A stretch of DNA of 64,000 nucleotides, from contig OY979716.1 of assembly GCA_963855995.1 (NCBI GenBank), positions 50,952,846 through 51,016,845 on the forward strand, given 5' to 3'. The position numbers and the translations under genes are program-made. The notes under the pieces were generated by a model. It saw nothing but the letters and a program-made list of their open reading frames with translations, was not told the origin of the DNA and ran no database searches. The DNA comes from Muricea muricata. Lineage: Eukaryota; Cnidaria; Anthozoa; Malacalcyonacea; Plexauridae. This document shows positions 1,842-47,055 of the stretch, one piece after another (position 1 is the first letter of the stretch; each line of letters starts with the position of its first letter).

Positions 1842-3137
1842 ATAATAATTCCAATATTAAATAAATTTAATTATCATAAGGATACAAACAAAAAACTCAA
1901 GAAGGCCAGTATTCCATCAAAAACTGAAAGAACTGTTGCAAAATCATCGGTAAGTAACTGCATTTATGTAGTGTTCCTTCGATGTATGCATTTGCGATAG
2001 CTTTTTACCCAAATTCATATCTTTTTTTTTCTATTTGTATGTATTCAGCCATCAATTGAGAGGAACGAAAAGACGGAGAAAAGGATGAAACTTGCCACGA
2101 ATGAAGATGAGACTACGGTTAGTATTAATAAGCTAATTTAGCATAATTGATTAGTACTGCCGCGTAGTAATCATATCGATTGTTATATTTACGATTGTGC
2201 ATGATGTTTGTTTTATAGTAACTTGCAACAAGCGTGAATTCATAAATAATTTACACTTTCTATTTGTTGTTAACAGGTCAACAAACATAAAGCACTTGAT
2301 TGGGTTGCAGTGGCATACGAAGCAAAGTTTTACATAGGCCAAGTTGTGCAAGAGGTTGATGACTGTAACGTTGTTATCAAGTTCTTGGAAAGGAAGGGTG
2401 GGGATTACTACCAGTGGCCAAAAAGGGACGATGTTGCAACAGTTGAAAGCAAGTTCATCTTTACCAAAGCCATAATTTCACCGGAGGGCAAACATTTCGA
2501 ACTGAAGGAACCACTAGAAAATATGCAAAAGCTGTTCAAAGCTTATAAAAAGAAATATTTTCAGCCATCATGTAAAGATCAGAACGAAGTTGTTTGCACA
2601 GCTACTATAAAGCCTAAATCCAGTTTCTACTTTTGGCCTGTTGATGGAGATTGGCAGGGAAAAAAGCAGCTTAAATTTGGTTTGGAGTTAATTAAGAAAC
2701 ACTTTACCAAGAAAAGAAAAGCTTTGAAACGCAGAACTGCACCAGCAAAAACTGTTCCAATCCAGGCTGACGGCAACGGTTTTTATAGGTCTATTTCCTA
2801 CTGGTTGACTGGCGACGAAGAACAATATGAAAAAGTTAGAACGATGTTAGTTAGTTACATGGGCGAGGATGAGTGGAAAGAGCGCGGGAGAAACATTGTT
2901 GGACGAGATATTGACGAATACCTAACAAAGGGTCGAATGAATGATTCTGGTGTTTGGGCTACGAAGACAGAAATACATGCTATGGCTAACTTTTTACTAA
3001 CAACAATTTTCGTTTATCATACTTATGATGAAAAGAACTATGAGTGGTTGCCTCATTATCCGCTTTGTGACAAACAGGAAAAATGCATTTATTTGAAAAA
3101 CACCGGTTTCCACTTTGAGCCTGTTATTGCAAATTAA
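1842..3137 (+). CDS. OTU-fold protein with altered catalytic centre, 5' end unresolved
   Basis: At least three exons join in phase 0: an open segment from ~1842 (after a TAG at 1839-1841) to 1949, then 2049-2117, then 2277-3137. All have clear GT/AG borders. The last exon opens with a segment (WVAVAY.A.FYIGQV) that I recognise from many invertebrate transposon-linked proteins. An OTU-like cysteine protease fold follows over about the last 130 residues: DGNGFYRS-IS in place of the usual DGNC motif, GVWATKTEI, and a C-terminal FHFEPV that supplies the histidine. The nucleophile Cys is a Gly here, so deubiquitinase activity would be lost even though the frame is intact. OTU domains are common transposon passengers. 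The initiator ATG was not found; GTG at 2310 is only an internal valine codon. It lies upstream of, and in the same orientation as, recombinase copy A. Confidence 0.6.
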
Positions 3138-3719
3138 TTAATCAAGGCTAATGAATGAAATATGAAGTTTTGTTTGTTCTTGGCAACCAGGTATGATAAT
3201 CATGTTACGCTCACTACTCTGGTTATGTTTAAACCGAAACAAAACCCGATAGAATTGCATTCACGACTCAACGTTTTAACACTCCAACCGAGTGTCTTCG
3301 TCAGGGGTGATATGATGTTGCAACTCTGCTCCTTATATACTCGAGAGATGACGTCATTTCTCGAGAAGATAGAAATATTCTTGCGTTAGCTATTTGCCAC
3401 AAGAATATTTCCACCACCTTGGTAAATGACGTCATCCCCACATAGCGTTCCCTTTTGTTGTTCCCTTTGTGGTTCCTTATGTTGTTCCGCAAAGGGGAAA
3501 CACGTCTTATGATTATCATTATTATGCTCGCAATCAACTTAATAATCGGAACAACAATTTGTTATGCACATACCATTCCCTTTTGTTGTTCCTTCTATTG
3601 TTCGTTTTAATATTGGACAATGTTATGTTGATGAACATGGAATTTGCATGCTTATTGGCATCGTGTTTAGAATAAAAGCCGAAGAAGTTGCTCACGTCGA
3701 ACGTTTGTCCAGTTTGTAC
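3138..3719. promoter_or_regulatory. Intergenic region with GTTCC/GGAAC cluster before recombinase A
   Basis: Between the OTU-like gene and recombinase copy A, the pentamer GTTCC or its complement occurs about six times between 3448 and 3600, embedded in T-rich DNA (TTTTGTTGTTCC-like). The same pentamer is far denser ahead of recombinase copy B, which suggests a shared cis element. Two TGACGTCA-like palindromes lie near 3352 and 3427, separated by an imperfect inverted repeat around CTCGAG and AAGAATATTT. Function is inferred only from position and recurrence. Confidence 0.4.
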
Positions 3720-5338
3720 ATGTTTACTCACAAAAAACCTCAGATCAATTGGAAGTCTTTAGAAGAGCATTTAAAAAGCTGAGACGATTGCATTTGGTAA
3801 AAGGCACCAATGGGTTAGAACATTGTCCAGTAACAGGCTGTGAACATGCAGGATTTGCAAGTCAAAGAGGCTGTTGTAAACATGTAAAAAATATTCATGC
3901 ATGGTATTTCTATTTCGACACTAAACCCACCATACGCTCTTCGCCTTTTGCAAAAGTCTGTAGGCAGCAAGTTCCTGGCTGTTCTACAGACAATGATTTT
4001 GCAAGCTCGTTTTCACAGTGGCTTCAAAGCAGCTGCGGTGGCGGAAAATCTCGCAAACAATCGGATAATTCAGTCACAAGAGCTTCAAAGTTTTTAAAGT
4101 TTTGTTGTGACGAGAATGGCGCCGCCGAAGAAGACGTGATGAACTGTCCTAGCCTGATTGACTATGCGTTGGGATCACCGCAACTTTTGACAAACTTTGT
4201 TGACAGTCTAAAAGACAAGTGGGGAATTGGACAATCAGGACAAATATCATACGTGTATTTCAGATTTATTGGATTTTCGAAAATTTAATTGTCCGCCTGC
4301 ATCAGTGCTTAAAAATTTTGCTGTCACTGAGGTGTATGTGAAAAGAGTGTGAAAGTGCTTAGCAAAGGACATGAGAGCAAATTGGACAACCGAACTAGAC
4401 ATTGAAACCCTCGAGTTGCAAAGAAGTTGGGCTACCCTTTCTGAAGTTCAATCCGTAATTCCATTTCACCGTGAACGTTATGAATCCGTGTTGGAAAACT
4501 GTATGGCGTGTCGTTCTTCAGTTACACCTGCGGACGTCACCTTTGCCACCCGATTCGTAGCTGCCTACTTGTTCCTAAAAGTAAAAGGTTGTCGCCCAAT
4601 GACATACCAGCATCTAACTTTACGAATGCTTGAAAGTGCCAAGAAAAACGAAGGTATGATTGACCAGAAAATTTTAAAGACAGCCAAAAAGTACGGTTTC
4701 AACAGCGTGTACTTAGACAAATGTTCCATTGACATGTTAGAGAAATATATCACGTTCATCAGACCCCTTCTGAAACCCACTTGCAAGTATGTATTGGTAA
4801 ATCGAAATGGAAAACAATTTCAAAAGCTTACAGATCTTTTCAGCGTCTTGGTATTCCAAGCCATTGGCAAATACATTCACCCCACTCGATACAGACAAAT
4901 TATCGAAATGCAAAGTGCCGAGTTTCTCCAACCAAACGAACAGAAATGGATATCTGAAGACCAAAAGCATAGCTCCAACGTAGCAGGTGTTCACTATCAA
5001 AAGAAACGTTCTCGAGAAGTTGCGATGAGAGGTCACCAATGCATGGAAAAATTAGTTGTGAGAGTAAGAACTTGGACGATCAATGCGAAAAGATTCAGCA
5101 TTTGTCAGCTGCACAAGATGACATACATCAAGCTGCTGCAATCATATGCACCCGTAAGATAACGCCAACGCGTAAGGGCATTCGCTTTACATCTGAAGAG
5201 GAATATTGTATTAGATTAGAAATACAACAATTTGGTTTGTGTTGGTCTAACATACTGTGCCATTCTGAATTCAATTTTAATGCATGTCGCGTTCCAAATA
5301 CTTTAAGAAAAAGGGCTGAAGCTTTAAAATTAGTGTGA
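3720..5338 (+). pseudogene. Tyrosine recombinase with zinc finger and SANT domain, copy A (decayed)
   Basis: This is the same gene as copy B at 11157-12791. From an ATG at 3720 it shows a C2H2-like finger (C-x4-C-x13-H-x4-H, complete in this copy), then a conserved segment around SSCGGGKSRKQS. The tyrosine recombinase core follows: GCRPMTYQHL carries Arg I, HPTRYRQI is the HxxR box, KHSS is the second His position, and VHYQK is the candidate nucleophile Tyr. A SANT/Myb-like tail ends in RVPNTLRKRAEALKLV. The catalytic residues are all present but the frame is not: an indel near 3760, a short deletion near 4253, TGA at 4350-4352 and a frameshift near 5085. It converges on helicase copy A across the hairpin array. 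Crypton-like recombinases are the nearest group I can name; that assignment is inference. Confidence 0.75.
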
Positions 5339-5569
5339 TTGAAAATCGTAACCATAATGTTGTAAAAATGGAAGAATTACAAAATGCTAGCATAAATAAT
5401 AATAAAAAAGTTCCAAGTTAGCAATGTGTATACTATTAAAAAAACAACTTACAAAATTGACCAAAGGCTACTGCCTGTTCGCCGCCCGTTGTGCATGAGT
5501 TTTTTTACTGGTTAACTTGGTGTTGTTGAGTCTTGTTGATATTATAGTAACAATAAAGAATTTTACTTT

Positions 5570-7095
5570 AAAAAAGTCTTGCCTCCCTTATGGTAAAGAA
5601 AAACCTTCAAAAAACTTCAAGGGCAGGCTACTGTTTGCCAGTAGCACAGGGTTGAATTTTTTCTAAGTGTCGTTTACACTATAATAATAGGAAGAAATTT
5701 AGTTGAAAAAATTCTAAGTCTTCTTCACCTTATGGTAGAGAAAAACTTAAAAAAACTCCAATGAACTTAGTGTGCTGAGAATATCACGGGCTACGGGCTA
5801 CCCCATACAAATTCTAATAAATATCACGGGCTACCCTCGGGCTACCACTCAAAATGACGGGCTACCAGTGAAAGTAGCCCGTGGTGATTTTTTTAAGTGT
5901 CATTCAGACTATGGTAAGACAAAGAAATTCAGTTGAAAAAATTCTAAGTCTTGCCTACCTTATGGTAGAGAGAAAAACTTTAAAAAAATTCAAGGGCAGG
6001 CTACCGTTTGTCAGTAGCCCATAGTTGAATTTTTTCTAAGTCTCCTACATACTATAGTAAGAATGAACAAATTTATTTGAAAAAATTCTAAGTCATCTTT
6101 ACCTTATGGTAGAGGAAAACTTAAAAAAAAATTCGAAGGCGGGCTACCGATTGTCAGTAGCCTATGCTTGAATTTTTTCTAAGTCTCCAATGAACTTAGT
6201 GTGCGGAGAATATCACGGGCTACGGGCTACCCCATACAAATCCTAATAAATATCACGGGCTACCCTTGGGCTACCGCTCAAAATTACGGGCTGCCACTGA
6301 AAGTAGCCTGTGGTGATTTTTTTTTCTAAGTGTCGTTCAGACTATGGTAAGATAAAGCAATTCAGTTGAAAAAATTCTAAGTCTTGCCTACCTCATGGTA
6401 GAGAGAAAAACTTTAAAAAAATTCAACGGCAGGCTACCGTTGTCAGTAGCCCATGGTTGAATTTTTTCTAACTCTCCTACATACTACAGTAAGAATGCAC
6501 TAATAGTATGTAGGAGACTTAAAAAAAATTCAAGCATAGGCTACTGACAATAGGTAGCCCGCCTTTTCAATTTTTTTTTCAAGTTTTTCTCTACCATAAA
6601 TAAGGTAAAGATGACTTAGAATTTTTTCAACTAAATTTGTTCATTCTTACTATAGTATGTAGGAGAGTTAGAAAAAATTTAACCATGGCTACTGACAAAC
6701 AGAAGCCTGCCATTGAATATTTTTAAAGTTTTTCTCTCTACCATGAGGTAGGCAAGACTTGTAATTTTTTCAACTGAATTTCTTTATCTTACTGTAGTCT
6801 GAACGACACTTAGAAAAAAAATCACCACGAGCTACTTTCAGTAGTAGCCCGTAATTTTGAGCGGTAGCCCGAGGGTAGCCCGTGATATTTATTAGGATTT
6901 GTATGGGGTAGCCCGTGATATTCTCCGCACACTAAGTTCATTGGAGGCTTAGAAAAAATTCAAGCATAGGCTACTGACAATCGGTAGCCCGCCTTTTCAA
7001 TTTTTTTTCAAGTTTTTCTCTACCATAAGGTAAAGATGACTTAGAATTTTTTCAACTAAATTTGTTCATTCTTGCTTAGTATGGACGAGACTTAG
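5570..7095. repeat. Hairpin array A, inverted arms of CGGGCTAC-bearing units
   Basis: The left arm (about 5570-6490) carries repeated ACGGGCTAC/GGGCTACC motifs separated by AAAAAATTCTAAGTC-type spacers. The right arm (about 6500-7095) carries the same units inverted, as GTAGCCCG. The turn lies near 6495, flanked by CCTACATACTA and TAGTATGTAGG. Within each arm smaller palindromes recur: AAAAATTCAA, a GTAGCC pair, then TTGAATTTTT. The single-stranded form would therefore fold at two scales. A longer unit beginning CCAATGAACTTAGTGTG recurs at 5757 and 6187 and inverted near 6930. The array sits exactly between the converging recombinase and helicase genes, as in copy B. Confidence 0.9.
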
Positions 7096-7235
7096 AAAAT
7101 AATGGAGCTACTGCCTATTACTGCCTTACTCAATTTGCACTTCATTTCGTTTTTGCTCTTTGGTTTAATCACACTTGATGTATATGTTAAAGAACAGTAT
7201 TATCAAACACACTAATTATAATCTTGGTTAGATCA

Positions 7236-7463
7236 ACTATAACACACTAATTTTAATCTTGATTAGGTCAATTATGTCATTGTCAATATGTCACACAGTG
7301 TTTACAAGTTTTTAGCGTCACCACGGGAACTTAAAAAACAATGCAAGACACTTATAATATAATACAGCTACGGCCTATAAAACACACTAATTTTAATCTT
7401 GATCAGATTAAGGAGTATTTCATTGTCACAGAGTTTTTACAAGTTTTTACCGTCCCCACGGCA
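7236..7463. repeat. Short direct repeats beside hairpin array A
   Basis: The string ACACACTAATTTTAATCTTGAT and close variants occur three times between about 7208 and 7405. A second segment ending in TTTACAAGTTTTTAGCGTC/TTTACCGTC plus CCACGG occurs twice (about 7295-7330 and 7432-7463). These look like a local tandem duplication of ~140 bp abutting the 3' end of helicase copy A. No function is apparent. Confidence 0.6.
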
Positions 7464-7516
7464 TCCAGCGTTTTACGACCATCCAACACGACTGCGACGG
7501 GACTTCTTGTCGTTCG

Positions 7517-10298
7517 TCAATTTGGCTTGTCTCCTCGTGGACTTTCTTTGCCTTTCGTTCTTTGCCTTTCTATCTCTCTTGCTACCGGACAGCGATCGCA
7601 CAAAACTCGTATATTCGCTGCACTTCGAAGGCTTTGGAAGCTTCGCGATATCCTCGGATGATGGTTGACGAAAGCCGCGATGTCGAAGATTTCTCGCTTT
7701 CGTCCGGTCAGAAGCATCCACGCATCAATCCACGGGTCGGGCGTTGTCCAGAAATCCTGTTCTTGTTTGGATCTTCTCAGCTCCGCCTGTAGTAATCTTT
7801 CCAAAAAAGAGTGAGCGTGTGCTTTGGAAACAAAATTGACCAGACCGTATTCAATTAATTCGGTGACTCTAGCCATGTAGTTCGGCTCGTTGAGTGTCCA
7901 ACCTCCTGGTGGAGTCTTGGCGTTCATTCTGTTTATTTGAGGGAATTCAGATGGTGCTGCGTCGTCGGTTTTTTGTTCACCAACTTCCGCCAATTCTGCA
8001 CCACCGGCCGTTTCGGCCATTGACACTGGTGGATGGTTGCTGTTGTTGAGTTTGGGGCGGTTCGTTCACGTCTCCTTCATCGGAGGGTTGTGGAGTATTC
8101 CGTCGCGTCTACAAGAAGAGGTGGACGCTGTGTCAATGATCCTTGCATTAGTGACATGGAGGATGCAGGATCGCTGCGAACTTCTGTAGAATCATCAATT
8201 TCCCCATCTGACGAATCACTGGAGATTGTTTGTCGAGCCCTTCTTCGCTTTCGTCTCGTCTGGCGCTGTTGGAACTCCGTGGCGAAGGTCTGGTGGATTA
8301 CTGGCAGATTTTGTTCAATGACATTTTCTGGACGCAGACTGGCTTCTGATATATGTCTTACCAGCGCGTTGTCAAGCAACATTTCACCCTCGTTTGCCGA
8401 AATGGTTAGCGGTTTAGAAGTGGTTCCTTCATACCATAAGTCGCTTTCTGGAATCACATGTCGGTTGGCACTGATCTCTTCTGCCATCCAGGCAATGCAA
8501 TCCATTGCATTGCCATACAACCAACGATTGATGCCTGGTCTTGGATGTGGGAGGGATTCTGTTACAAATATATCCACTCGACGCCTTACGTTCTCGTCTT
8601 CATCGCCGAAGTCTGGCACGTGGTTTGTCGTAATGTAATACGGACTATTGTTGAACACGGTGCGTGGATTTCCGTGTTTCACGGCGGTCACCATCCATCC
8701 ACCTTGTAAGATGCTCTTTGCAAGATCCGATTCCATGGTGTTGGCCGACCATTCGTCAACGATGACAAGTTGGGTTTCGTTCGTTATCATTGCAGCAGCA
8801 AACTGTTTTTCCTTGGTAAGGGAAGATGGCAGAGGATGGAATTATGCGGTGAAATATATTAGACCAAAACGTTTTTCCTGAATCCTTTGGACCTGCAACG
8901 ACCAACTTTTTTACCTTGTGTGGCATGTTAAATGCAGAAAAGCACTGGTAAAATTTGTTGAGGAATCTAACACGCTCTTCATCCTTGGGAAACGAGTTGA
9001 GTATTGCTTCCTCGAAATACTGTGGATCCGGTATAGTGGTATGATCATACGGTACAAACGCTCTGGGAGAGATTTTGCCAAGCTTTGACGTCGGTATTGG
9101 GCAGGGAATGAAACTGCGGGATTTGATCGAAAAACAGTAACCATTTGAGACCTCTATGAGATCGAGATCAAATTTGATTTGTTCAATGATCTCGCACGCA
9201 GGATGACTTAAAAACTTTTCGATGGACGCAAAATGTCGGAGGATGTTATCTCAAAAGGTTTCGTTTCCCAATAGATGGTGCAAGTAGCTGGACACATCTG
9301 TCATTCTCACGAACGTAAGTGCAGCTTCGTCGGGCTTCACGTACACATCGGAACGGTAGATGGCATGATGGCAAATGGTCATGACCTTGTCGATTTGGTG
9401 GATTGTTGTAGCTAATGGTGGTGGTCACGAAACAAGGGTTGTCAAAGCCATGTCCTGCACCCATTTCAACAACGAGCTCGTCTGCTTGAAGCCTTTCGAT
9501 CGCTGTACTCAGTTGCTCGCCAAATTCCTGCACATTTACAACAAAAAGGCAGGAAGGAACAAGGGGGAAACGCGTCGACCGGGAGTGAAGCAAATCATCA
9601 ATCTCTTCTTTGTCGCAGCTGTCAGATGACAACGATTCTTGGGCGTGGCGAAAGCAGTAAACATTGGAAACGTCCAGCATTTCTTGTATCGTTGCGTTGT
9701 TGTGGTCTTTCACCATGTTAAACAGTTGACGCGTGGTTGTTTCCATCTCCCTGTTGGAAGAGGCGGCATTCAAAGGCATACGCGGTCTCACTCGAATGGC
9801 TGTGATATCAGGCTCCATATCTTCATTATGTATAGCCGAAAACAAGGGTGCCTCATTGAACGTATCGCAATTTTTGTACGCTATAAAGAACGCAACAGCT
9901 GGGTAACTCTCTCTCGATGAAGAACTTTGCGAGTCAACGGTTTGGCTGCTCTTCACGTTACACATCACACTCGTGACGCAAGAGAAATAAAATTGCACAC
10001 CCTGTGTTGTCGACAAAACGTCGTCTAGACGCAAACGTTTGGATGCTATTTGGTGTCTGGCCAGTTCGAAGTCTTCACTGTCTACCTTCCACACGGCACG
10101 AAATGCTATCGCTCGCAAGCAGTTAAAAATCTACGGATACAAAGAGTTAAAAAAATTCAACAGTATTGTAGAAAGAGGGCCACAAAGCAACTCGAAGAAT
10201 GTATAAGAGATCATTGAACTTACCAAGTTTAAAATGTTTGCACGAAGCGAGTTTTGCAGTCGCGTGGAGTCAAGCGATTTACGAGGCCTAGGAGGCAT
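7517..10298 (-). pseudogene. Superfamily 3 helicase gene, copy A (decayed)
   Basis: Exon 1 is 10298-10224 (25 codons) and exon 2 runs from 10130, the same structure as copy B. The helicase core has a Walker A (GPKDSGKT), Walker B (LVIVDEW), a motif C region ending SPYYITTNHVP and an Arg-finger stretch (DENVRRRV). This order and spacing is that of SF3 helicases of small DNA viruses and their relatives (parvovirus NS1, papillomavirus E1). The C-terminal region shares an IDAWML segment with copy B. Breaks: frameshift near 9400, TGA at 9251-9253, frameshift near 8820, and a frame change near 8050-8090. I could not identify an HUH nickase N-terminus. Whether it derives from a virus or a plasmid-like element is open. 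It lies tail-to-tail with recombinase A and its 5' end faces recombinase B across 0.86 kb. Confidence 0.75.
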
Positions 10299-10429
10299 TG
10301 CTATATCTGTCTGCTCGAACTTTTCACTTTAAATAACCACTGTAATAATTGTATAAAGAGCTTTCTTGTGAGCAGCTTGTGAGCGAAAAATATTTTATTT
10401 GCTTCAAAGAAGTGTTTTTATACAAAAAG

Positions 10430-11035
10430 TATGTCCGAATTTGCATTTTATGTATGAAGGGAACAGATTTATGTACTTTGGTGATCTAGCATATCCTTAA
10501 ATATTGTTCCTTTTGTTATTTTTTTTAAAAAACTTTTTTCGCATGGTTTCGCGCCATTATTGTAAAGTAATTCGATTGGCTGAAACCGTAAGGGTGGGAA
10601 GATGTTAACTTCAGCATTAAATAATTTAGGATTTCTAATTGCTTATAGAAAATGGGATTTCCTCACGCCTTGCTTTATGCATCTATTTAAAGCGCCAATT
10701 AGGAACACATGTTAATTGCGTAGGCAGTTCTCATTTTAAAAAGGAACGCGATTTGAAACGGAACAAATTGTTCCGACTTCAATTTGAACGTTCCTTATAC
10801 TTAATTGTTACTCAAATAGGAACGCTATCACAAATATTGCAATTAGGAACAACAAATATGTTCCCTATTGTGGTTGCTTATTTAGGAACAAAAGGTTCCG
10901 CTCTGCGAAACAGGAACGAATAGTAATGCTATAAACTATTATTCGTTTATTGCTAATCAGCTTACTGAAAGGGAACAACAAAGGGTATTGTTCCCTTTAA
11001 TTTTGTTCCGTTTTATTGTTCCCTTTGCAGCATTA
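10430..11035. promoter_or_regulatory. Dense GGAAC/GTTCC iterated motif between divergent helicase A and recombinase B
   Basis: GGAAC or GTTCC occurs about 14 times between 10740 and 11035, plus two more near 10460 and 10505. They are often in paired inverted orientation (for example GGAACAAATTGTTCC at 10759). The region is the shared upstream space of helicase A (minus) and recombinase B (plus). A conserved block, GGGAACA followed by GTACTTTGGTGAT, lies upstream of both helicase copies (about 10460 and 18378). Iterated short motifs of this kind often bind a transcription factor or replication initiator; that role is inference. Confidence 0.55.
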
Positions 11036-11156
11036 CATTAACACAATGCAATGTAATCTATATGGATGAATGGATTTTGCAAGCTAATAATTACGCTATG
11101 TTCACTATAAAAAGCAAAAAGATTTTGCTCGCGTAGCATTTGCTCTTTGTACATGC

Positions 11157-12791
11157 ATGTTGTCACGAAGGAAAACACAAGTAAATTGGAAATCTGTCGA
11201 TGGGGCATTTGCAAAGTCGAGACGTTTGCACTTGGTGAAAGGTAGCGATGGGCTAGATCATTGTCCTGTAACGAGCTGTGAACACACAGGATTTGCAAGC
11301 AAAAGAGGCTGTCGTAAACATGTAAAAACAAAGCGTGCTTGGTATTACTATTTCGACGAGAAGCCCACCGTATGCACTTCGCCTTGTGTAATAGACGAAA
11401 GCAACGCAAATAAAGAGTCTAAAACAGTACCCTGCTGTTCGACAGACAATGACTTTGCTCGTTCATTTTCCAAGTGGCTTCAAAGCAGTTGCGGCGGCGG
11501 AAAGTCTCGTAAACAATCTGACATTTCAGTAACGAGAGCTTTGAAGTTTATAAAGTTTTGTTGCGATGAAAATGGCGAGGGGGAGGAAGAGGTTCTTCGT
11601 ACTCCTAATCTCATCGACTACGCCTTGGGATGTCCTCAGCTGTTCACAAAATTCGTGGACGCTCTAAAAGACAAGTGGGGTATTGGAAAATCAGGACAAA
11701 TATGTTATGTAGCAAGCATATCAGATTTGCTTGATTTTTGCAAGTTCAATCGTCCTCCTGCATCGGTGCTTCAAAACTTTTCGGTTACCGAAGTGTATGT
11801 GAAGAGAGCGCGAAAGTACCTAGCGAAAGACATGCGATCCAATTGGACAAGCGAATTAGACATAGAAACCCTTGAATCGCGGAGAAGTTGGGCGACCCTT
11901 TCCGAAGTGCAATCTGTAATTCCATTTCACATCGAACATTACGAATCGGTATTAGAAAATTGTATGGCAAATCCTTCCTCAGTCACACCAGGCGATGTTA
12001 CCTTTGCTACCCGCTTTGTCACAGCTTATCTGTTTCTTAAAGTAAAGGGCTGTCGTCCCATGACATACCAGCATCTTACCTTGCAAATGTTTGAGAGCGC
12101 AAAGAAGAACGAAGGAATGGTAGATCAGAAAATTTTTAAGACAGCTAAGAGATACGGTTTTGACAGTGTGTACTTTGACGAATGCAGCATGGATATGTTA
12201 GAGAAATATATAAAGTACATCAGACCACTTCTCACACCCAGTTGCAAGTACGTGTTGGTAAATCGTAACGGCAAACAGTTTCAGAAACTTACAGAACTTT
12301 TTAGTGTGTTGGTATTCGAAGCGATCGGGAAATAGATTCATACAACCAGATACAGACAAATCATCGAAACCCAAAGTTCTGAAGTTCTTCCACCAAGCGA
12401 GCAGAAGTGGATATCTGAAGATCAAAAACATAGTTCTAACGTTGCCCGTGTGCACTATCAAAAGAAACGTTCGCGAGAAGTAGCCATGAGAGGATGCTTG
12501 TGCATGCAAAAATTACTTGACCAGAGCAACTGCGTGGATAATGATTGCAACATAGTGGAACAGCTGCCAGCCATACCAAACAAAGTCAATTCAACAAACT
12601 TGACAAACAAATTATCCACACGTCGTGCTGGTGTCCGTTTTACATCTGATGAAGATGACTACATTAGACTTGGTATTAAAAAATTTGGTTTAAGTTGGTC
12701 AAAGATTCTGCGTCATGCAGATTTCCATTTTAATTCATGTCGTGTTCCAAATACTTTAAGAAAGAGAGCTGAAGCTTTAAAATTAGTATGA
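11157..12791 (+). pseudogene. Tyrosine recombinase with zinc finger and SANT domain, copy B (one stop codon)
   Basis: A 545-codon frame opens at the ATG at 11157 and is interrupted only by TAG at codon 393 (12333-12335), where copy A has a Tyr codon. Order of domains: finger-like C36-x4-C41-x13-H55 (the fourth ligand of copy A is Arg here); a conserved middle region with CGGGKSRKQS; Arg I near residue 300 in GCRPMTY; HxxR at H395-R398; second His H425; candidate nucleophile Y434 in VHYQK; SANT/Myb-like domain about 490-540. The stop separates Arg I from the rest of the active site, so the truncated product could not recombine. It could still bind DNA. No frameshift is present, so it died recently or is read through. 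It converges on helicase copy B across hairpin array B. Confidence 0.8.
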
Positions 12792-12977
12792 TTGCATGCA
12801 AAGCATAAAAGTGGGTTTTATCATATACAACTACTGTGGTTGCTAATAGTGTTGACAATATATATAGGTTCCTGACAATATACTCATACGTCTTATACTT
12901 GTATAAAAAAGATAAAAATGAATGTATCACACCTAACAGCAGTCGTTATTGATCTTCTTCCAAGTGATCTTTAAAAT

Positions 12978-15120
12978 TAGTTTGTTAAGAAAGCAACGGG
13001 CTACGGGCTACCCAATACTATTCCTAATAAATATGACGGGCTACCAACGGGCAACTAATGCAAATCACGGGCTACCAATGATCGTAGCCCGTCTCTATAC
13101 TTTTCTAAGTTTCGTATAGTAAAACAGAAAAACATAGTAAAACAGAAAAAATTTTACTTAAAAATATTCTAAGTCTATCAAACTTGATGGAATGAGAAAG
13201 ACTTTAAAAATATATGAACGGGCTACCAAGGATGAGTAGCCCGTGATCAATTTATTTCTAAGTGACGGCTAATGTTAGTTTGTGAAGAAAGCAACGGGCT
13301 ACCCAATACTATTCCTAATAAATATGACGGGCTACCAACGGGCTACCAATGATCGTAGCCTGTCTCTATACTTTTCTAAGTCTCGTACAGTAAAACAGAA
13401 AAACATAGTAAAACAGAAAAAATTTTACTTAAAAATATTCTAAGTCTATCAAACTTGATGGAATGAGAAAGACTTTAAAAAATATATGAACGGGCTACCA
13501 AGTACGAGTAGCCCGTGATCAATTTATTTCTAAGTGACGGCTAATGTTAGTTTGTTAAGAAAGCAACGGGCTACCCAATACTATTCCTAATAAATATGAC
13601 GGGCTACCAATGATCGTAGCCCGTCTCTATACTTTTCTAAGTCTCGTATAGTAAAACAGAAAAACATAGTAAAACAGAAAAAATTTTACTTAAAAATATT
13701 CTAAGTCTATCAAACTTGATGGAATGTGAAAGACTTTAAAAAATATATGAACGGGCTACCAAGGATGAGTAGCCCGTGATCAATTTATTTCTAAGTGACG
13801 GCTAATGTTAGTTTGTTAAGAAAGCTACGGGCTACCCAATACTATTCCTATAATAAATATGACGAGCTACCAACGGGCTACCAATGCAAATCACGGGCTA
13901 CCAATGCAAATCACGGGCTACCAATGGTCGTAGCCCGTCTCTATTTTTTTCCTACTCGTTCAATGTAGCTCCTATATGTTAAAAATAAAAAGTATACACG
14001 ATCAAGCTTAAAAGACTTGGAATGTTTTTAAGTAAAATTTTTTCTGTTTTACTATGTTTTTCTGTTTTACTATACGAGACTTAGAAAAGTATAGAAACGG
14101 GCTACGATCATTGGTAGCCCGTGATTTGCATTGGTAGCCCGTCATATTTATTAGGAATAGTATTGGGTAGCCCGTAGCCCGTTGCTTTCTTAACAAACTA
14201 ACATTAGCCATCACTTAGAGATAAATTGATCACGGGCTACTCATCCTTGGTAGCCTGTTCATATATTTTTTAAAGTCTTTCACATTCCATCAAGTTTGAA
14301 AGACTTAGAATATTTTTAAGTAAATTTTTTTCTGTTTTACTATGTTTTTCTGTTTTACTATACGAGACTTAGAAAAGTATAGAGACGGGCTACGATCATT
14401 GGTAGCCCGTCATATTTATTAGGAATAGTATTAAGTAGCCCGTAGCCCATTGCTTTCTTCACAAACTAACATTAGCCGTCACTTAGAAATAAATTGATCA
14501 CGGGCTACTCATCCTTGGTAGCCCGTTCATATATTTTTTAAAGTCTTTCTCATTCCATCAAGTTTGATAGACTTAGAATATTTTTAAGTAAATTTTTTTC
14601 TGTTTTACTATGTTTTTCTGTTTTACTATACGAGACTTAGAAAAGTATAGAGACGGGCTACGATCATTGGTAGCCCGTGATTTGCATTGGTAGCCCGTTG
14701 GTAGCCCATCATATTTATTAGGAATAGTATTGGGTAGCCCGTTGCTTTCTTCACAAACTAACATTAGCTGTCACTTAGAAATAAATTGATCACAGGCTAC
14801 TCATCCTTGGTAGCCCGTTCATATATTTTTTAAAGTCTTCCTCATTCCATCAAGTTTGATAGACTTAGAATATTTTTAAGTAAAATTTTTTCTGTTTTAC
14901 TATGTTTTTCTGTTTTACTATACGAGACCTAGAAAAGCATAGAGACGGGCTACGATCATTGGTAGCCCGTGATTTGCATTGGTAGCCCGTTGGTAGCCCG
15001 TCATATTTATTAGGAATAGTATTGGGTAGCCCGTAGCCCGTTGCTTTCTTAACAAACTAACATTAGCCGTCAATTTGAAAAAATTGATCACGGCTATACT
15101 CATCCTTGGTAGCCTGTTCA
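12978..15120. repeat. Hairpin array B, four direct then four inverted ~275-bp units
   Basis: The left arm has four tandem units starting AGTTTGTTAAGAAAGC at about 12978, 13276, 13549 and 13811. Each carries CGGGCTACC motifs, a paired AACATAGTAAAACAGAAAA segment and a TTTATTTCTAAGTGACGGCTA tail. After a short centre near 13960-14010 the same units appear inverted, with GCTTTCTTAACAAACT at about 14184, 14450, 14744 and 15040. The whole is a ~2.1-kb near-palindrome made of smaller palindromes. It shares the CGGGCTAC core with array A and CCTAATAAATAT spacers, but the two arrays are clearly diverged. It begins 187 bp after the recombinase stop and ends 313 bp before the helicase stop. Confidence 0.92.
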
Positions 15121-15432
15121 CATATTTTTTTAAAAGTCTTTCATAGACGATCGAGTTTATTTTTAAGTAAAATTTGCTCTAATTTACTATACTATACATT
15201 GAATGAGACTCAAAAAGAAATAGAGACAAGCGTAACAAGTAGCTATCATGTATCTTTCAAATTTGTCTATATACAAAAAGCTCTTTCGCTTTACGAACTC
15301 AACATGCAAAATATAGTGTGCAATTTCACTGGTATACTTCAATAGAATATTGTAAACATTTCATTTTTTAATGAAAAGTGATGAACTCAACGTTGTATTT
15401 TTTAATGCTGTTTTCACACGCTGAAAGAATGT

Positions 15433-18239
15433 TTATTTGCTGATCCAACTTCTAAAAGTTGTCCACAGTGTTTGAGAAGACAATTGCGGGGCTACTGTGG
15501 TGTCGGCATTGTCCAATGCTTGTTTGACAGGGCACCGGCTTTCCAAAACAAGAACGTTCATTGTTTTTCTTAGTTCTTGAAGTTTGGGGAAAATATTGGG
15601 ATGTCTTTTCACAAAACTTTTCAAATCGAACACCTCGCGAACATTTCCAGTCGCCAACATCCATGCATCGATTTCAGGGTCCGCCTTTTCCCAGAATTGA
15701 CGGTCTTTGTGTGTACGTTTGGTCTTCGCATTATCACGTCGTTGTAGAAAGGAGTGAACATGACCTTTTTTTAAATCTTTGTATAAGTTACACTCGAGAT
15801 AGTTAGCCACTTTGTCGAAGCACTCAAGGTTGTTAAGGGCCCAACCTTCTGCAGGGGTTGAAGAATATCGTGTGGTGAATAAGTCGTATGGGGGAGGAGT
15901 TTTTTCTGCATCGTTTGCGTCGTTGTCGACACGAGCTGGTTCTTGTTCCACCGGCAGGACAGCATTTTCAGTTTCGGTCAAGTTATTACTGAGTGGCGAC
16001 GATTGTTGCTCGTTTGTTGTCTTGTCTTCGTCAACTTGTCCGCATGGTGACGGTTCCACATTGGCCAAAGGACTCTCGTCGTCGCTCAAAGTGTCGCCCT
16101 CATGCTGTGCGATAGAAGTGGATGGTTGATCGACCTGCGAATGGGAAGTTGGTTCGTGGATGGGGTTCGTTATGTTAGTATTAACAGTGATGTTGCTGCT
16201 TACAGGTTGTTCGTCCTCTTCGTTCGAGCTGTCAGAGAGAAAGCCTTTCGTCTCTTTCTCGCAAGACGTCTGGACTTTACCTCAGCCGTGAATCCTGGAT
16301 GTATCTGGTGTGGTTGGAGATCGGCTTTCGTTATTTGTTGCACTTCGTGTCGTTTCCACAAACTCTCGCCATCTACCAAATTTATAACAGACTTGTCGCA
16401 TCTTTCGTGCCATAGCTCGTCAGTAGGAATCATATCACGATGCTGGTCGATTTCTTTGGCGACCCAGACAATGCAATCCCATTGCATTGTCGTGTATCCA
16501 GCTGTCGATGCCTGGGATTGTATTTGGTAAAGAAGACGTATTGAACACGCGAATTCGACGCTTCACGTTCTCATCTTCCTCTCCAAAATCCGGAACGTTA
16601 TTGGTACTAATATAGAAGGGACTATTGTTGTTCACGCATTTAGGAAGAGCATGCTTGATTGACGTGACCATCCAGCCACCTTGTAGAATGGTTTTCGCCA
16701 GGTCCGACCGCATTTTGCTACTGGACCACTCGTCGATGATAGTTAGCTGGGTCAGATCTGTAATCATCGCTGCGGAAAACTGTCCTTCGTTTGTGACGGA
16801 CGCTATATACTCGGGTGGGATAATTCGGTGGAACACTTTGCACCATGACGTTTTCCCAGAATCAAGAGGCCCAGCGACAACTAGTTTTCTCGTATTCTGC
16901 GGCATTTTGAATGCAAAAAGGCACTGATAGAACTTGTTGAGAAACTTTACACACTCTTCCAAGTCTGGAAATGAATTTAGGATGCCTTGTTCAAAGTATC
17001 GAGGTTGAGGTGGTGTCGAACAGTCATACTCAAGGAACACCCGAGGTGAGACTTTGCCAATTTTTGATGCTGGAATGGTGTTTGGCACGAATTCACGCTT
17101 GCTGATTGAAAAGCAAAAGCCGTTTGATACTTCTATTAAATCCAGGTCAAACTGGAGTTGCTGCACAATCTCGCATGCAGGATGTGATAGAACTCTCTCA
17201 ACCGCTTGGAAATTGCGAAGAAGGTCATCGTTGAGGGCATCATTCGCCAGCAATTTGTTGAGGTAAGTGGAGACGTCCATCATCCGCACGTACGTCAGCT
17301 TTGCATTGTCCGGTAGCGCATAAATTCCGGAACGGTATAAGGCGTGGCGACAAATTTCCATAACACGAGTGATCTTTCTTATAGTACGGGTAACATGATT
17401 GGAGTCCCACACGGATTGCACATTGCTTGAATGTGCTGGCGCCAAAGATCTTTGTAGAACAAGGCCATCGGATTCAAGCTTGTCAAGAGCGGTGTTGATG
17501 GCATCGAAATAGCCTTGGTGGTCAACTACAGTAAAAACGCAAGGGCAGGTTGGAAAGTGCGTTGGGTGGAATTCGTCCATTTCCTCCGAGTCGCTGTCGT
17601 CATCTGTGGAACCGCCAGATGCATTCTCGTAGCAGTACACGTTGGATACATTGAGCATCTCCCGAATGCTGTTGTTGTTGTGGTCTTTCAAGCGTTGAAA
17701 AAGATGCCTCGCCACGGTCTCTATCTCGTTGCGACCGAACTTGCGAATGGTCAACGGAGTAATTGTTGGCTCCAAGTCTTGGTTATGCAATGCGCTGAAA
17801 AATGTGTCATCGTTGCAGCTCTCGGTTACAGTATACACAATAAAATAGGCTATTGATGGATAAACATCGTTTGTATCTTTGTTTTGGAAGTCTTCCTCGT
17901 CCACTTTTGTCTTCGCGTTCGAGCACACACTTGTTATACACGAAAAAAAGAAATGTACGCCTGGAATGGCAGTGATTGCCTCGTCAAGAAGCAAGCGTTT
18001 GGAGGCGATTTGAAATCTTGCAAGTTCTATATCTTCCTTGCAAACGCGCCAAGTAGCACGGCAAGCAATTGCTTTGTGATTATCTTTAATCTAATAAATA
18101 TAAAAAAAATATGCTTTTTTCTGTGTTTGCATTGATTTTTATCGCAAGCAAAATGTCGACTTACCAGGGTTAAGATGTTTGCTCTCAAAGAGTTTTGAAT
18201 TCGCTTGGAATCTAACTGTTTTCGTGGTTTAAAAGGCAT
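15433..18239 (-). pseudogene. Superfamily 3 helicase gene, copy B (two frameshifts)
   Basis: Exon 1 is 18239-18165 (75 nt, opening MPFKPRKQLDSKRIQNSLRA), then a short intron, then exon 2 from 18090. The helicase core is intact over ~500 codons: Walker A GPLDSGKTSW (about 16850-16872), Walker B LTIIDEW (about 16730-16751), motif C ending SPFYISTNNVP, and Arg finger region VKRRIRVF. Just after the core an extra G in a GGG run (16478-16480, compared with copy A) shifts the frame, and a second shift lies near 16235. Beyond it a Ser/Glu-rich linker leads to a conserved C-terminal block with HVHSFLQRR and IDAWMLATG. SF3 helicases are hexameric DNA unwinding motors used in replication initiation. 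No rolling-circle nickase motif was found, so the replication mode cannot be inferred. Confidence 0.75.
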
Positions 18240-18394
18240 ATTGCACAACGGCATGAACCGCTATAAGTTGCACTCGCAGTCTTTTGATTTTGTGTCGCTG
18301 TGCAAATTTGCATGGGGAATGTGCAAATAGAGAAATTGGAATAGAGGAATATGGGAATTTGCAATAGTTTAAATGGGGAACAATATTTAGTACT

Positions 18395-18775
18395 TTGGTG
18401 ATGATGATGATGATGATGATAATGATGATGATGGTGATGATGATGGTGGTTGTGATGGTGAGGTGGTGGTGAAGATGATAATGGTGGTGTTGGTGCGTGA
18501 TAGTAGTTGCTGATTGGGATTAGGGTGAGGATGGTAATGGTAGTGATTGTGGTGGTGGTGGTGTTGGTGATGGTGGTGGTCAGGTTGTGGTGATAATGAT
18601 GGTGATGATAATAATAGTGATGGTACAGTGGTGATGGTGGTTGTGATTGTTGTGGTGATGACGATTATGATGGTGAGAGTGTTGGTACAGTGGTGATAGT
18701 GGTAGTGATGGTAAAAGTGGTGGTGATAGTGCTGGTGATGATGGTGGTGGTGATGTAGCATCATCTTCTTCACCA
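18395..18775. repeat. GAT/GGT trinucleotide-rich tract, first orientation
   Basis: Plus strand is almost pure GAT, GGT and GTG triplets (reads as poly-His on the complement). It begins directly after the conserved GTACTTTGGTGAT block upstream of helicase B, so the expansion may have grown out of that GAT. Translations rich in His are artefacts of the repeat and not genes. Confidence 0.9.
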
Positions 18776-18784
18776 CTATCCCTG

Positions 18785-19375
18785 CCGGACAATCACTATC
18801 ACCATCATCATCATTATCATCAATATCATTATCATCATACCATCACTATTCCCATCATCATCACTATCACCGCCACACCATCACTATCCTAATCGTCACT
18901 ATCATCACCACCACTATCATCATCACTACCATACCATCGTCACCACCATCATCACCACTGTACCACCAATATCATTACCACCATATTATTATTATCAACG
19001 CCATTGCCACCATACCATCACCACCGTTATCGTCACCAAACCATCACTATCGTCACCATCATCATTTTCATCATTATTATCACCACCACCACCTTCACTA
19101 TCACCATCATCATTATCACTGCTATCACCATCGAACTATTACCATTATTATCATCATCGCCACCACCATCACCAACCTACTATCACTATAATTATCATTA
19201 TCATCATTACCATTACTATCATCACCATCACCACTGCCACAGTACCATCACGATCAGCATAAACACCACCATCATCACCACCATACTATACATCACCATC
19301 ACCACTGTATTATGAAGAAAAATTATCAAGACCACCACCACCGCTATCACTATTACCAACACCACCACAACAATC
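18785..19375. repeat. ATC/ACC trinucleotide-rich tract, opposite orientation
   Basis: After a ~15-bp turn near 18775-18785 the purine strand switches: the plus strand becomes ATC/ACC/CAT triplets for ~590 bp. A further block of the same kind lies at 19548-19745 after ~170 bp of ordinary sequence. Together with the preceding tract this forms an imperfect giant inverted repeat of degenerate trinucleotides. Confidence 0.88.
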
Positions 19376-19547
19376 ATCTATCTCTATCTGATGTCAGTCC
19401 ATCCAATGTTATGTTTTGTATTGGAACCCCGTTATTGGGGACTTCATCTCTGTGTAATCATTCCAGCCATTGTATGTATGACATTTATTTAGTGTATGTA
19501 AATTCTGTTGTGTAATTGTTATTCTAATGATGGCAAATTTTGTAAAA

Positions 19548-19745
19548 ATAAAGTCATCATCATTGTCGTCATCGTCAACGACACCAACGCCATCATTTCC
19601 ATACAACAATCACTGTTACCAACAACACCATCAGCATCATCACCATCATCATAATCATAATCATTATCATCATCATGATCATGATCGTCGTCGCCACCAT
19701 CAATACCATCGCCACCATTACCACCTTCGCCATCATCACCACCAC
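19548..19745. repeat. Second ATC/CAC-rich tract
   Basis: A 200-bp block of CATCATCACC-like triplets in the same orientation as 18785-19375. No coding potential is credible. Confidence 0.85.
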
Positions 19746-22344: not shown

Positions 22345-22629
22345 GTCATATTGCACCACAGGCTTATAAACAAACTCAGTTTCATTCGATCTTTTTATTT
22401 CGACACGAATACAACCCTTTAAAAGACAGGGAATCAGCTATAAATCATGTAAGTTATTTTATGATCATTAAATAAGAGTAGATAATATTTTTACAATTTT
22501 TCATATCACAGTATACATTGTCATCATATAACAGTATTTATTACTGAAATGTATATCCTGTTAAAATATTCCGCAAAAGTACTATTGAACATTTTATAAT
22601 AAATTACTTAGTGTATGTACAAGTTAAAA

Positions 22630-23060
22630 AATTTTGTCATTGCTTGACCATTCAGGAGATTTGTCAAGTTCATTCTCACAGTTTGTGCAGTCAATACATT
22701 GGCACATATCATTATGTGTGTTTAATGCTTTTTTTTGCAGGAGCACGGTTTGGTTCCACAACCTGTTTTACACTTGCAGTTACAATTTGCAAGCAAAGCA
22801 TCTGGGGCACAGTTTCCATCCATCCACTGAATACTTATTTTGCCTTCTTGATTTAATTTCCAACCATTGTTGACTGGGCTTGGGGCATCAATGCAACAGC
22901 TTGTAGATTGCTTCCATACTGCTGCTTGGTAATTGGCTCTCTGGAGATGCTTTAGAAGGCAATCTTTATTTAGTGGCATAGAAGAATCAGAAAATTTTCC
23001 AATTCGGAACATGTTGTATCGTAGAACATTGACACTGGATTCCTTTTTTTACCTTGTACG
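22630..23060 (-). pseudogene. CXC (tesmin/TSO1-like) domain C-terminal fragment, left arm copy
   Basis: The minus-strand frame shows a segment ending ISIQWMDGNCAPDALL followed by a cysteine cluster CNCKCKTGCGTKPCSCKKKH, a TAA in frame, then MCQCIDCTNCEN in the same register. Spacing of the cysteines is that of a CXC/CRC zinc-binding domain, frequent at the C-termini of transposon proteins in cnidarians (recalled, not checked). Only the last part of the gene is present. Confidence 0.55.
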
Positions 23061-23859
23061 ATTTTCATACAGCTGCCTCTATTTCCTTTTCGAACTACTC
23101 ATCAAAGGAAAATTCAGCTCCCTGGGAGGTTAATACAGCCACAGATGTTGGGTCATGCAATAGCATATTCTATGAAGATACCTTGCTGTAACCATGAAAT
23201 AAGCAGGTTGAATCACATCCTAGAAATTACCTAACGAGTAACCTTTGAGAACTATGTAACTGTTGAGAACTCCCTCCCCCCACTGAAGAAAGGCACTAAT
23301 CCCTTTCCCCTACACATGTCATTTTACTCCACATTTTACTAAGAAAATTTCTGTGAGTGGAGCATGGACCAATTCAGACATGGCCATGAATGATAATGAA
23401 ATTGTGACCATACATGCAAGTTGTTTACCAGATTCAGTCAGATGCACTCATACAACCCCTCCCCTATTCTAAATGTTTCAAGTATTTACAGGTGGTGTTG
23501 TCTAAGTCCATGTGACCAAGTCTGATCACACTGCAAATGATATAAGAATGTGTTATTCATACCTTACCAGTAAGTGCATGAAATCCAATCGATGCTCTAC
23601 ATTTTTCTTCACCTGATTGCTGTGCGATATACTCTGTGTCAAGTATTCTAGGATGTGATTCAACCAGCTCATTTCATGTTTACAGTAAGGTATCTTCATA
23701 GAATATCCTATTGCATGACCCAACATCTGTGGCTGTATTAACCTCCCTGGGAGCTGAATTTTCCTTTGATGAGCAGTTCCAAAAGGAAATAGAAGCAGCT
23801 GTATGAAAATTGTACAAGGCAAAAATGAATCCAGTGTCAATGTTCTACGGTACAACATT

Positions 23860-24235
23860 TTCTGACTTGGAAAATTTTCTGATTCTTCTATGCCACCAAA
23901 TAAAGATTGCCTTTTAAAGCATCTCCAGAGAGCCAATTTCCAAGCAGCAATCTACAAGCTTGTAGCATTGATGCCCCAAGCCTGGTCAACCATGGTTGGA
24001 AATTAAATCAAGAAGGCAAAATAAGTATTCAGTGGATGGATGGAAACTGTGCTCCAGATGCTTTGCTTACAAATTGTAATTGTAAGTGTAAAACAGGTTG
24101 TGGTAAACCAAACCGTGCTCCTGCAAAAAAGCATTAAACACATGTAATGATATGTGCCAATGTATTGACGGCACAAACTGTGAGAATGAGCTTGACAAAT
24201 CTCCTGAATGGTCGAGCGATAAAGAAATTTTTTAA
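23860..24235 (+). pseudogene. CXC (tesmin/TSO1-like) domain C-terminal fragment, right arm copy
   Basis: Mirror copy of the fragment in the left arm, with the same WMDGNCAPDALL block and cysteine cluster CNCKCKTGCGKPNRAPAKKH. A small indel scrambles the last cysteines in this copy. No upstream part of the gene survives on this arm. Confidence 0.5.
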
Positions 24236-24525
24236 CTTGTAAATACACGTATACAGTAGATAAGTAGTTTAATTAATATAAAATGTTCAATAGTACTATT
24301 ATGGAATATTTTAACAGAATATACATTTCAGTAATAAATACTTTTATATCAATATGTATACTGTGATATGAAAAATTGTAAAAACATTATCTACTCTTAT
24401 TTAATTATCATAAAATAACTTACATGATTTATAGCTGATTCCCTGTCTTTTAAAGGGTTGTATTCGTGTCGAAATAAAAAGATCGACGAAACTGAGTTTG
24501 TTTATAAACCTGCAGTGCAATATGA

Positions 24526-33599: not shown

Positions 33600-33735
33600 A
33601 TGTGTTGATGTGGTTGATCTAATGTTTGATAATTGTTATATTATCGATCGATCAAATGACTGGTCGTTGTTATTTAAAGAAGCTTACCACATTCGTCATT
33701 GTGATCCATCACTGAACCACGGCACATGCAGCAAA
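33600..33735 (+). pseudogene. Possible GIY-YIG-type endonuclease tail fragment
   Basis: A short translated stretch (LLFKEAYHIRHCDPSLNHGT) resembles the end of the GIY-YIG endonuclease domain found in Penelope-like retroelements. Only ~45 codons remain and the flanks are unrelated. Identification is weak and rests on memory of the family. Confidence 0.25.
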
Positions 33736-39167: not shown

Positions 39168-39285
39168 TCAGAGCGAGTATTGCACAATATTTTGCCCTTC
39201 CCGGAATTCGTAATTGTTTACATGAAGTATATCTTGTTCAGTGAAAAATTTTAACGAAATAAGCACAGAAGTCGATCGAGTTGAA

Positions 39286-46984: not shown

Positions 46985-47055
<71 letters not shown>

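What the first reader, a model, noticed from the sequence alone, without database searches (positions are those of the whole stretch)
3720..18239. Duplicated module: tyrosine recombinase, hairpin array, convergent SF3 helicase
Two copies share gene order, orientation, a 25-codon first helicase exon, and a hairpin array placed precisely between the converging genes. Cryptons and DIRS elements have tyrosine recombinases but, to my knowledge, no SF3 helicase; SF3 helicases belong to small DNA viruses and plasmid-like replicons. A replication motor, a site-specific recombinase and a cruciform-capable locus together suggest an excising, episomally replicating element.
Basis: partly seen in the sequence, partly recalled or inferred. 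Interest (0 to 1): 0.88.

Follow-up and report, generated by a model that had tools for sequence, protein, structure and literature searches.

The report
Coral jumping gene with own replication helicase
Two related mobile DNA elements sit end to end in the genome of what is probably a soft-coral relative, each with a cut-and-join enzyme, a virus-type replication helicase and a large two-sided array of short repeats that looks like a start site for copying DNA, which suggests a transposon that can pop out and copy itself like a plasmid.

Summary
Two copies of tyrosine recombinase (YR, +) / inverted-repeat array / SF3 helicase (-) lie at about 3439-10482 and 10489-18399. They are not a local duplication but two subfamilies of one transposon, joined head to tail through a 6-bp core (TACTTTGGT-GATCTA-GCATATCC; five such junctions in the 453-Mb genome, no control hits). 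Both genes and the array lie between one pair of ends: close copies match up to 99.8% to sharp ends with different flanks. 41 of 49 helicase loci have a convergent YR within 12 kb (random placement: 0.3). Insertions favour CAT/GGT trinucleotide repeats. The YR has a conserved YR active site, an Xer/Cre/Tn1549-like predicted core and a TRF-like Myb domain; the helicase models as SF3 (SaPI5, D5, Rep, E1). Seven of seven arrays sampled carry 24-128 copies of GGCTAC, mostly in two opposed halves; the preceding triplet differs by subfamily (ACG, ACC, CCT), as expected of initiator iterons. Best reading: an integrative, self-replicating element, Crypton-like in integration and PICI-like in replication layout. 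Excision and replication are inferred. Both window copies are broken; copies with open frames exist elsewhere.

The parts
3439..10482 (+). Element 1 (closest to subfamily A), left-truncated: about 357 bp of the subfamily-A left end have no counterpart; right end present
   Evidence: blastn to subfamily-A loci L031/L007: homology from window ~3439-3459 to 10482
3720..5338 (+). YR1, tyrosine recombinase, broken (stops and frameshifts)
   Evidence: rows C1:50956609-50958180
5560..7110 (.). Array 1: repeats with GGCTAC/ACGGGCTACC motifs in two opposed halves
7520..10130 (-). HEL1, SF3 helicase, main coding part, broken
   Evidence: rows C1:50961345-50962960
10224..10298 (-). HEL1 first exon, 25 codons, followed by a GTAAG donor
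   Evidence: read by eye from the sequence; compare P0012 N-terminus
10474..10482 (+). Right end of element 1, TACTTTGGT
10483..10488 (+). 6-bp core GATCTA between the right end of element 1 and the left end of element 2 (head-to-tail junction)
10489..18399 (+). Element 2, 7,911 bp, both ends present
   Evidence: left end GCATATCC (10489) and right end TACTTTGGT (18391-18399)
10498..10510 (+). Left subterminal repeat TAAATATTGTTCC, inverted partner of 18377-18389
11157..12791 (+). YR2: C2H2-like finger, core-binding and catalytic domains, C-terminal Myb; one in-frame stop at 12333-12335
   Evidence: first ORF 98% identical to P0121
12955..15200 (.). Array 2: ~260-290-bp units, direct in the left half and inverted in the right half, centre about 13,950-14,090; 50 GGCTAC words in 12801-15400
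15433..18090 (-). HEL2, SF3 helicase, main coding part, frameshifted near 16,465 and again further 3'
18165..18239 (-). HEL2 first exon, 25 codons, followed by a GTAAG donor
   Evidence: read by eye from the sequence
18377..18389 (+). Right subterminal repeat GGAACAATATTTA
18391..18399 (+). Right end of element 2, TACTTTGGT, followed by (GAT)n target repeat

Best explanation
Each module is one transposon of about 7-11 kb with two genes and an origin-like array. Inferred cycle: (1) The YR, guided by its zinc-finger-like and TRF-like Myb domains, recombines the two ends across a 6-bp core and releases a circle whose junction is TACTTTGGT-N6-GC(A/G)TATCC, flanked in the window type by inverted GGAACAATATTTA/TAAATATTGTTCC arms. 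(2) The SF3 helicase, through its N-terminal domain, binds GGCTAC iterons in the array just 3' of its own gene; the two opposed iteron sets load two hexamers that unwind outward, and host polymerases copy the circle. (3) The circle reintegrates by YR recombination at CAT/GGT-rich sites, including the core beside an existing copy, which makes head-to-tail tandems. Replication before reintegration would explain how a recombination-only mover gains copies. Shown: gene pairing, shared ends, a hexamer core, target preference, subfamily-specific iterons, conserved active sites, open copies. Inferred: circle, initiator-iteron binding, replication.
Confidence: 0.74

Rival explanations
1. A Crypton-like cut-and-paste or circle-integrating transposon that captured an SF3 helicase for another use (regulating itself, or unwinding during excision). 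The array is the helicase's binding platform but not an origin.
For: The YR and ends alone explain integration. No replication is shown. Copies could also increase if excision is repaired from a sister copy (inference).
Against: The helicase core is an initiator-type SF3 motor with conserved motifs. The arrays have two iteron sets 3' of the helicase gene, the layout described for PICI origins. 24-128 sites is a lot for autoregulation.
Confidence: 0.17
2. A degenerate endogenous DNA virus (parvovirus, papillomavirus or polinton-like) that kept replication and integration genes and lost its capsid.
For: E1/D5-type helicase: 35 of 45 members hit PPV_E1_C at E <= 0.01, P0003 itself below the curated cut-off. 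YREC and an SF3 helicase both occur among polinton-like viruses (PMC12220804, passages).
Against: In the two complete elements scanned (A on C15, B on C3) no ORF of 180 aa or more exists besides YR and helicase; ORFs were judged by length, not by profiles, and introns were not modelled. No IMG/VR contig gave a relative.
Confidence: 0.06
3. Two unrelated transposons (a YR element and a helicase element) that happen to be neighbours.
For: 8 of 49 helicase loci have no convergent YR within 12 kb, and both genes cluster on contig C1.
Against: One pair of ends encloses both genes; copies share both genes, array and ends at about 99% identity in different places; 41 of 49 convergent pairs.
Confidence: 0.01
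4. The array is an amplification device like the inverted repeats of the yeast 2-micron plasmid (recalled): the YR inverts it during replication.
For: YR plus large inverted repeats plus a possible replicon; arms up to 273 bp at 97% complementarity.
Against: Neither ACTTTGGT nor GCATATCC is found exactly in the four arrays searched, on either strand; the conserved array word is GGCTAC, not the YR core.
Confidence: 0.04

Closest known systems
Crypton (eukaryotic YR DNA transposons)
   Same: YR as the recombination enzyme; short 4-6-bp terminal repeat as presumed crossover; proposed circular intermediate (PMC3212892, passages only).
   Different: Second gene (SF3 helicase), internal iteron array, 13-bp subterminal inverted repeats, and finger plus Myb on the YR. 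The paper's passages say animal Cryptons have no C-terminal domain and that no terminal repeats were found in them; the word helicase has 0 occurrences in its main text.
PICI/SaPI bacterial islands
   Same: Integrase, initiator, and an origin of two iteron sets immediately 3' of the initiator gene (PMC6092414, passages only). SaPI5 primase-helicase is the top VIA match of the helicase; by Foldseek the top match is ASFV PrimPol.
   Different: Bacterial, phage-induced, packaged, with further genes; no sequence homology shown. Analogy only.
Tn916/Tn1549 conjugative transposons
   Same: YR that recombines a circle with loosely specific sites across a short core carried from the donor (recalled); Tn1549 integrase is among the VIA matches.
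   Different: Conjugative bacterial elements without SF3 helicase (recalled).
Polinton-like viruses and virophages
   Same: YREC and SF3 helicase are both found among them (PMC12220804, passages only).
   Different: 14-40 kb viral elements in protists; SF3 fused to a polymerase in the cases quoted there; no counterpart of the array known to me (recalled).
Papillomavirus/parvovirus initiators
   Different: Free viruses with capsids and no YR (recalled).

Membership tests
Crypton | YR with R-H-R-Y catalytic residues | tested here: met
   R 52/52, H 41/52 (10 N, 1 T), R 51/52, Y 49/52
Crypton | 4-6-bp direct repeats at the termini | tested here: inconclusive
   A hexamer lies at both ends, but left and right hexamers are identical in only 2 of 10 elements
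Crypton | No terminal inverted repeats | tested here: not met
   13-bp inverted repeats lie 9-10 bp inside the ends of element 2
Crypton | Animal Cryptons: no C-terminal domain on the recombinase | tested here: not met
   C-terminal Myb in 39 of 52 at E <= 0.01 and TRF1-like fold
Crypton | YR falls in the Crypton clade of a YR tree | not tested
   no Crypton reference sequences were gathered
SF3 helicase superfamily | Walker A, Walker B, motif C and arginine finger in an SF3 fold | tested here: met
   motif names recalled
Polinton-like virus / virophage | Capsid genes and a viral DNA polymerase | tested here: not met
   two complete elements (A on C15, B on C3): no ORF of 180 aa or more besides YR and helicase; by length only, introns not modelled
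Parvovirus/CRESS-type rolling-circle initiator | HUH nickase domain ahead of the SF3 motor | tested here: inconclusive
   no HUH motif recognised by eye in A1; the N-domain was barely covered by the fold comparison
PICI/SaPI | Iteron origin immediately 3' of the initiator gene, two sets | tested here: met
   layout only (compared); origin activity and common descent not claimed
PICI/SaPI | Phage-dependent induction and packaging | not testable with these tools
   animal genome; no helper known
DIRS/Ngaro | Reverse transcriptase beside the YR | tested here: not met
   no long ORF besides YR and helicase between the ends of element 2 or of the A and B elements scanned; by length, not by profiles

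The most novel reading that the evidence does not exclude
Cnidarian genomes carry integrative plasmids of their own: capsid-less elements that excise by a tyrosine recombinase, replicate as circles from a two-sided GGCTAC iteron origin with a dedicated SF3 initiator whose specificity has split into subfamilies (ACG, ACC, CCT), and reinsert into CAT/GGT repeats. They would be an animal counterpart of bacterial integrative replicating islands and a possible bridge between YR transposons and small DNA virus replicons.
Probability: 0.5. Interest if true: 0.92.

Novelty: new variant of a known kind. Interest (0 to 1): 0.83.

Why it matters
YR transposons have no known built-in way to raise copy number (recalled). 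An element that pairs a YR with its own initiator-type helicase and an iteron array offers one, in an animal. It also joins a small-DNA-virus type of replication module to a transposon integration module, which bears on where such viruses and plasmid-like elements come from. The prediction is sharp: a junction TACTTTGGT-N6-GC(A/G)TATCC on circles, and binding of each subfamily's helicase to its own iteron. In eight searches of the open-access library I saw, in the titles and abstract starts of the listed papers (lists capped at 6-20, and in several cases many more papers held the terms), no YR transposon with an SF3 helicase in animals; subscription papers, preprints and Repbase were not searched.

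Tried and rejected
Rejected: local duplication (the two elements are different subfamilies); two separate transposons; arrays as YR crossover sites (no exact ACTTTGGT or GCATATCC in the four arrays searched); viral relatives in IMG/VR (no pattern match; 28 and 23 pattern matches, none confirmed by tblastn). Third inverted-repeat region at 22,386-24,486: among the top words printed no 12-base GC-rich word occurs more than twice, and there is no blastn match to element 2, so taken as unrelated. PDB sequence search of the helicase gave nothing. Pfam on window pieces gave only hits below the curated cut-offs for YR and helicase. Helicase synonymous sites are saturated, so no ratio. The left end of element 1 was not found in the window. 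The empty-site search in the genome and the left- and right-end copy counts by pattern (and repeats of the first) did not complete, so non-autonomous copies were not counted. Flanks of two of three subfamily-A insertions joined without duplication read as open acidic frames across the junction; such low-complexity frames are weak evidence. ALOG paper PMC3537659 and Troyka paper PMC12440569: passages seen, no such element in them.
Full report
WHAT IS THERE. The window lies on contig C1 of a 453-Mb, 74-contig genome. Named helicase homologs are from Dendronephthya gigantea and Paramuricea clavata and the closest named YR homologs from P. clavata; both are octocorals. The two modules exist as described. 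The 25-codon first helicase exon is present in both, and the D. gigantea protein P0012 begins with the same segment. The genes are broken in both window copies. Copies with open frames of each gene exist elsewhere in the genome.

ONE ELEMENT, NOT TWO. The 92 helicase and 86 YR match rows merge into 49 and 56 loci; both counts are lower bounds, because the tool scores only the best candidates. 41 of 49 helicase loci have a convergent YR within 12 kb, against a mean of 0.28 and a maximum of 3 in 1000 random placements. In two cases one YR serves two helicase loci, so 39 YR loci are distinct. The null does not keep clustering, but orientation is a second test: of neighbour pairs within 12 kb with the YR on the helicase's 3' side, 46 of 47 face each other; on the 5' side the tally is 15 to 13, as expected for neighbouring elements. 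Of 25 near-full-length YR loci (514 or more of 544 residues matched), 22 have such a partner (read). In other assemblies, 7 contig lengths are shared exactly between the 120 listed of 173 helicase hits and the 120 listed of 151 YR hits, among them contigs of 34,153 and 44,213 bp; ten offset controls gave 0 in nine cases and 1 in one. Over ten pairs, identities of the two proteins correlate (r = 0.61; 2 of 20,000 permutations); one pair is nearly identical to subfamily A of this genome, and shared descent of hosts could add to the correlation.

ENDS AND JUNCTIONS. Close copies of one subfamily match at up to 99.8% and stop abruptly at the same place with different flanks. The helicase-side end is TACTTTGGT (CACTTTGGT in L017, L018, L028, L029), the YR-side end GC(A/G)TATCC, with one GCATATCG. 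In ten elements with both ends held, the hexamer left of the YR-side end is fixed per subfamily (CATCAT 4 of 4 in A, CATCTA 5 of 5 in B, GATCTA in the window type), while the hexamer right of the helicase-side end varies: CTTTAT, CATGTT, CGTGGT and CATAAT in A; CATCTA, CATCAT and CGTGGT in B. Two of the five B rows share flanks, so nine sites are independent. In the CATCTA subfamilies (B and D) the element's own hexamer also stands on the right in 5 of 9 non-tandem copies, but in A it does so in 0 of 6. The first fits recombination across a 6-bp overlap whose heteroduplex can be resolved either way; the second fits equally well a fixed end without exchange. The circle junction that this predicts, ACTTTGGT-N6-GCRTATCC, occurs exactly five times in the genome, each between neighbouring elements by the coordinates, and 0 times in the control; one of them is the junction in this window. 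Right flanks are trinucleotide-periodic in 17 of 23 rows (14 of 20 distinct) against 0.2% of 878 control 50-mers; the control leaves out the window's own microsatellites, and in clusters a locus's row can show a neighbour's flank, so the ratio is a rough one. 37 of 49 helicase loci are on C1, which holds 27% of the bases.

THE WINDOW. Element 2 runs from 10489 to 18399 (7,911 bp), with 13-bp inverted repeats at 10498-10510 and 18377-18389. Element 1 ends at 10482 and lacks its leftmost ~357 bp. Element 1 is closest to subfamily A among the loci compared (81% DNA identity over 2 kb with the YR); HEL2 with its end is 96% identical in DNA to the copy at C1:41.84 Mb. So the tandem probably arose by insertion of one subfamily at the end of another. 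Lengths elsewhere: about 7.0 kb (A, contig C15) and 11.1 kb (B, contig C3), computed from the coordinates. In these two complete elements no ORF of 180 aa or more exists besides YR and helicase.

THE ARRAY. In all seven arrays sampled (two in the window, and one each of A, B, C, D, E; A and D held in part) the word GGCTAC occurs 24-128 times where about 0.6-2.7 are expected from equal base use. It points one way in one half and the other way in the other half most clearly in window 2, B and E, also in window 1 and A, less regularly in C; only one half of D was held. The three bases before it are mostly ACG in window 2 (44 of 50), A (22 of 26) and D (16 of 24), and most often ACG in window 1 (11 of 27); ACC in B (81 of 88) and E (126 of 128); CCT in C (38 of 52). 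Subfamily C also has the most divergent helicase N-domain (41-44% to the others, against 49-61% among them), and E's helicase core is closest to B's (73%). This is what one expects if the helicase N-domain reads the word, but six subfamilies are few, and the pattern could also simply follow descent. In PICIs the origin lies immediately 3' of the initiator gene with two iteron sets flanking an AT-rich stretch (PMC6092414, passages); the layout here is similar, though the array centres are only slightly richer in AT than the rest.

AGE AND RANGE. Copies up to 99.8% identical mean recent activity. YR dN/dS between subfamilies A and B is 0.13. Clytia hemisphaerica, a hydrozoan, has proteins of both families (P0212; P0252 and P0253), but on contigs of different lengths in these lists, and whether they are linked there could not be tested. 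No IMG/VR contig gave a relative by this method.

WHAT IT IS MOST LIKE. Integration is Crypton-like, but inverted repeats and the Myb domain break two Crypton features as given in PMC3212892 (passages), and the helicase gene is an addition, so I do not file it as a Crypton. The replication side is PICI-like in layout and SF3-initiator-like in fold. YREC and SF3 helicase are both known among polinton-like viruses (PMC12220804, passages), which are larger and viral. The steps that remain inference are excision as a circle, initiator binding and replication.

Noticed in passing
window 2274-3137 (+): ORF of 287 aa with an OTU-like cysteine protease domain (Pfam E 3.7e-8) just upstream of the truncated left end of element 1; no homology to the element loci held.
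   Followed up: partly
window 22386-24486: Large inverted repeat (arms up to 180 bp, 91-98% complementary, 420-1835 bp apart) with no sign of the GGCTAC arrays.
   Followed up: partly
window 18396-19744: Long GAT/CAT/CAC trinucleotide region with a strand switch near 18760; the likely original target of element 2.
   Followed up: partly
window 33716-34956 (+): Two ORFs that read like a non-LTR reverse transcriptase (by eye).
   Followed up: no
window 39226-41573 (+) and 57731-58234 (-): ORFs that look like an integrase-core family with a helix-turn-helix region, the core present twice (by eye).
   Followed up: no
window ~46990-48010 (+): About 1 kb of a short tandem repeat open in three frames (FIHS repeats), which may explain the low GC and strong skew there.
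   Followed up: no
G000 contig C1: 37 of 49 helicase loci are on this one contig (27% of the bases), in clusters with tandem and opposed copies; cause unknown.
   Followed up: partly
L002 and L030, beyond the helicase-side end: Both are followed by GGGGTATCGTAT(T/A)GGTAAAATTTGTT(C/T)CC, which resembles a left end of another subfamily.
   Followed up: no
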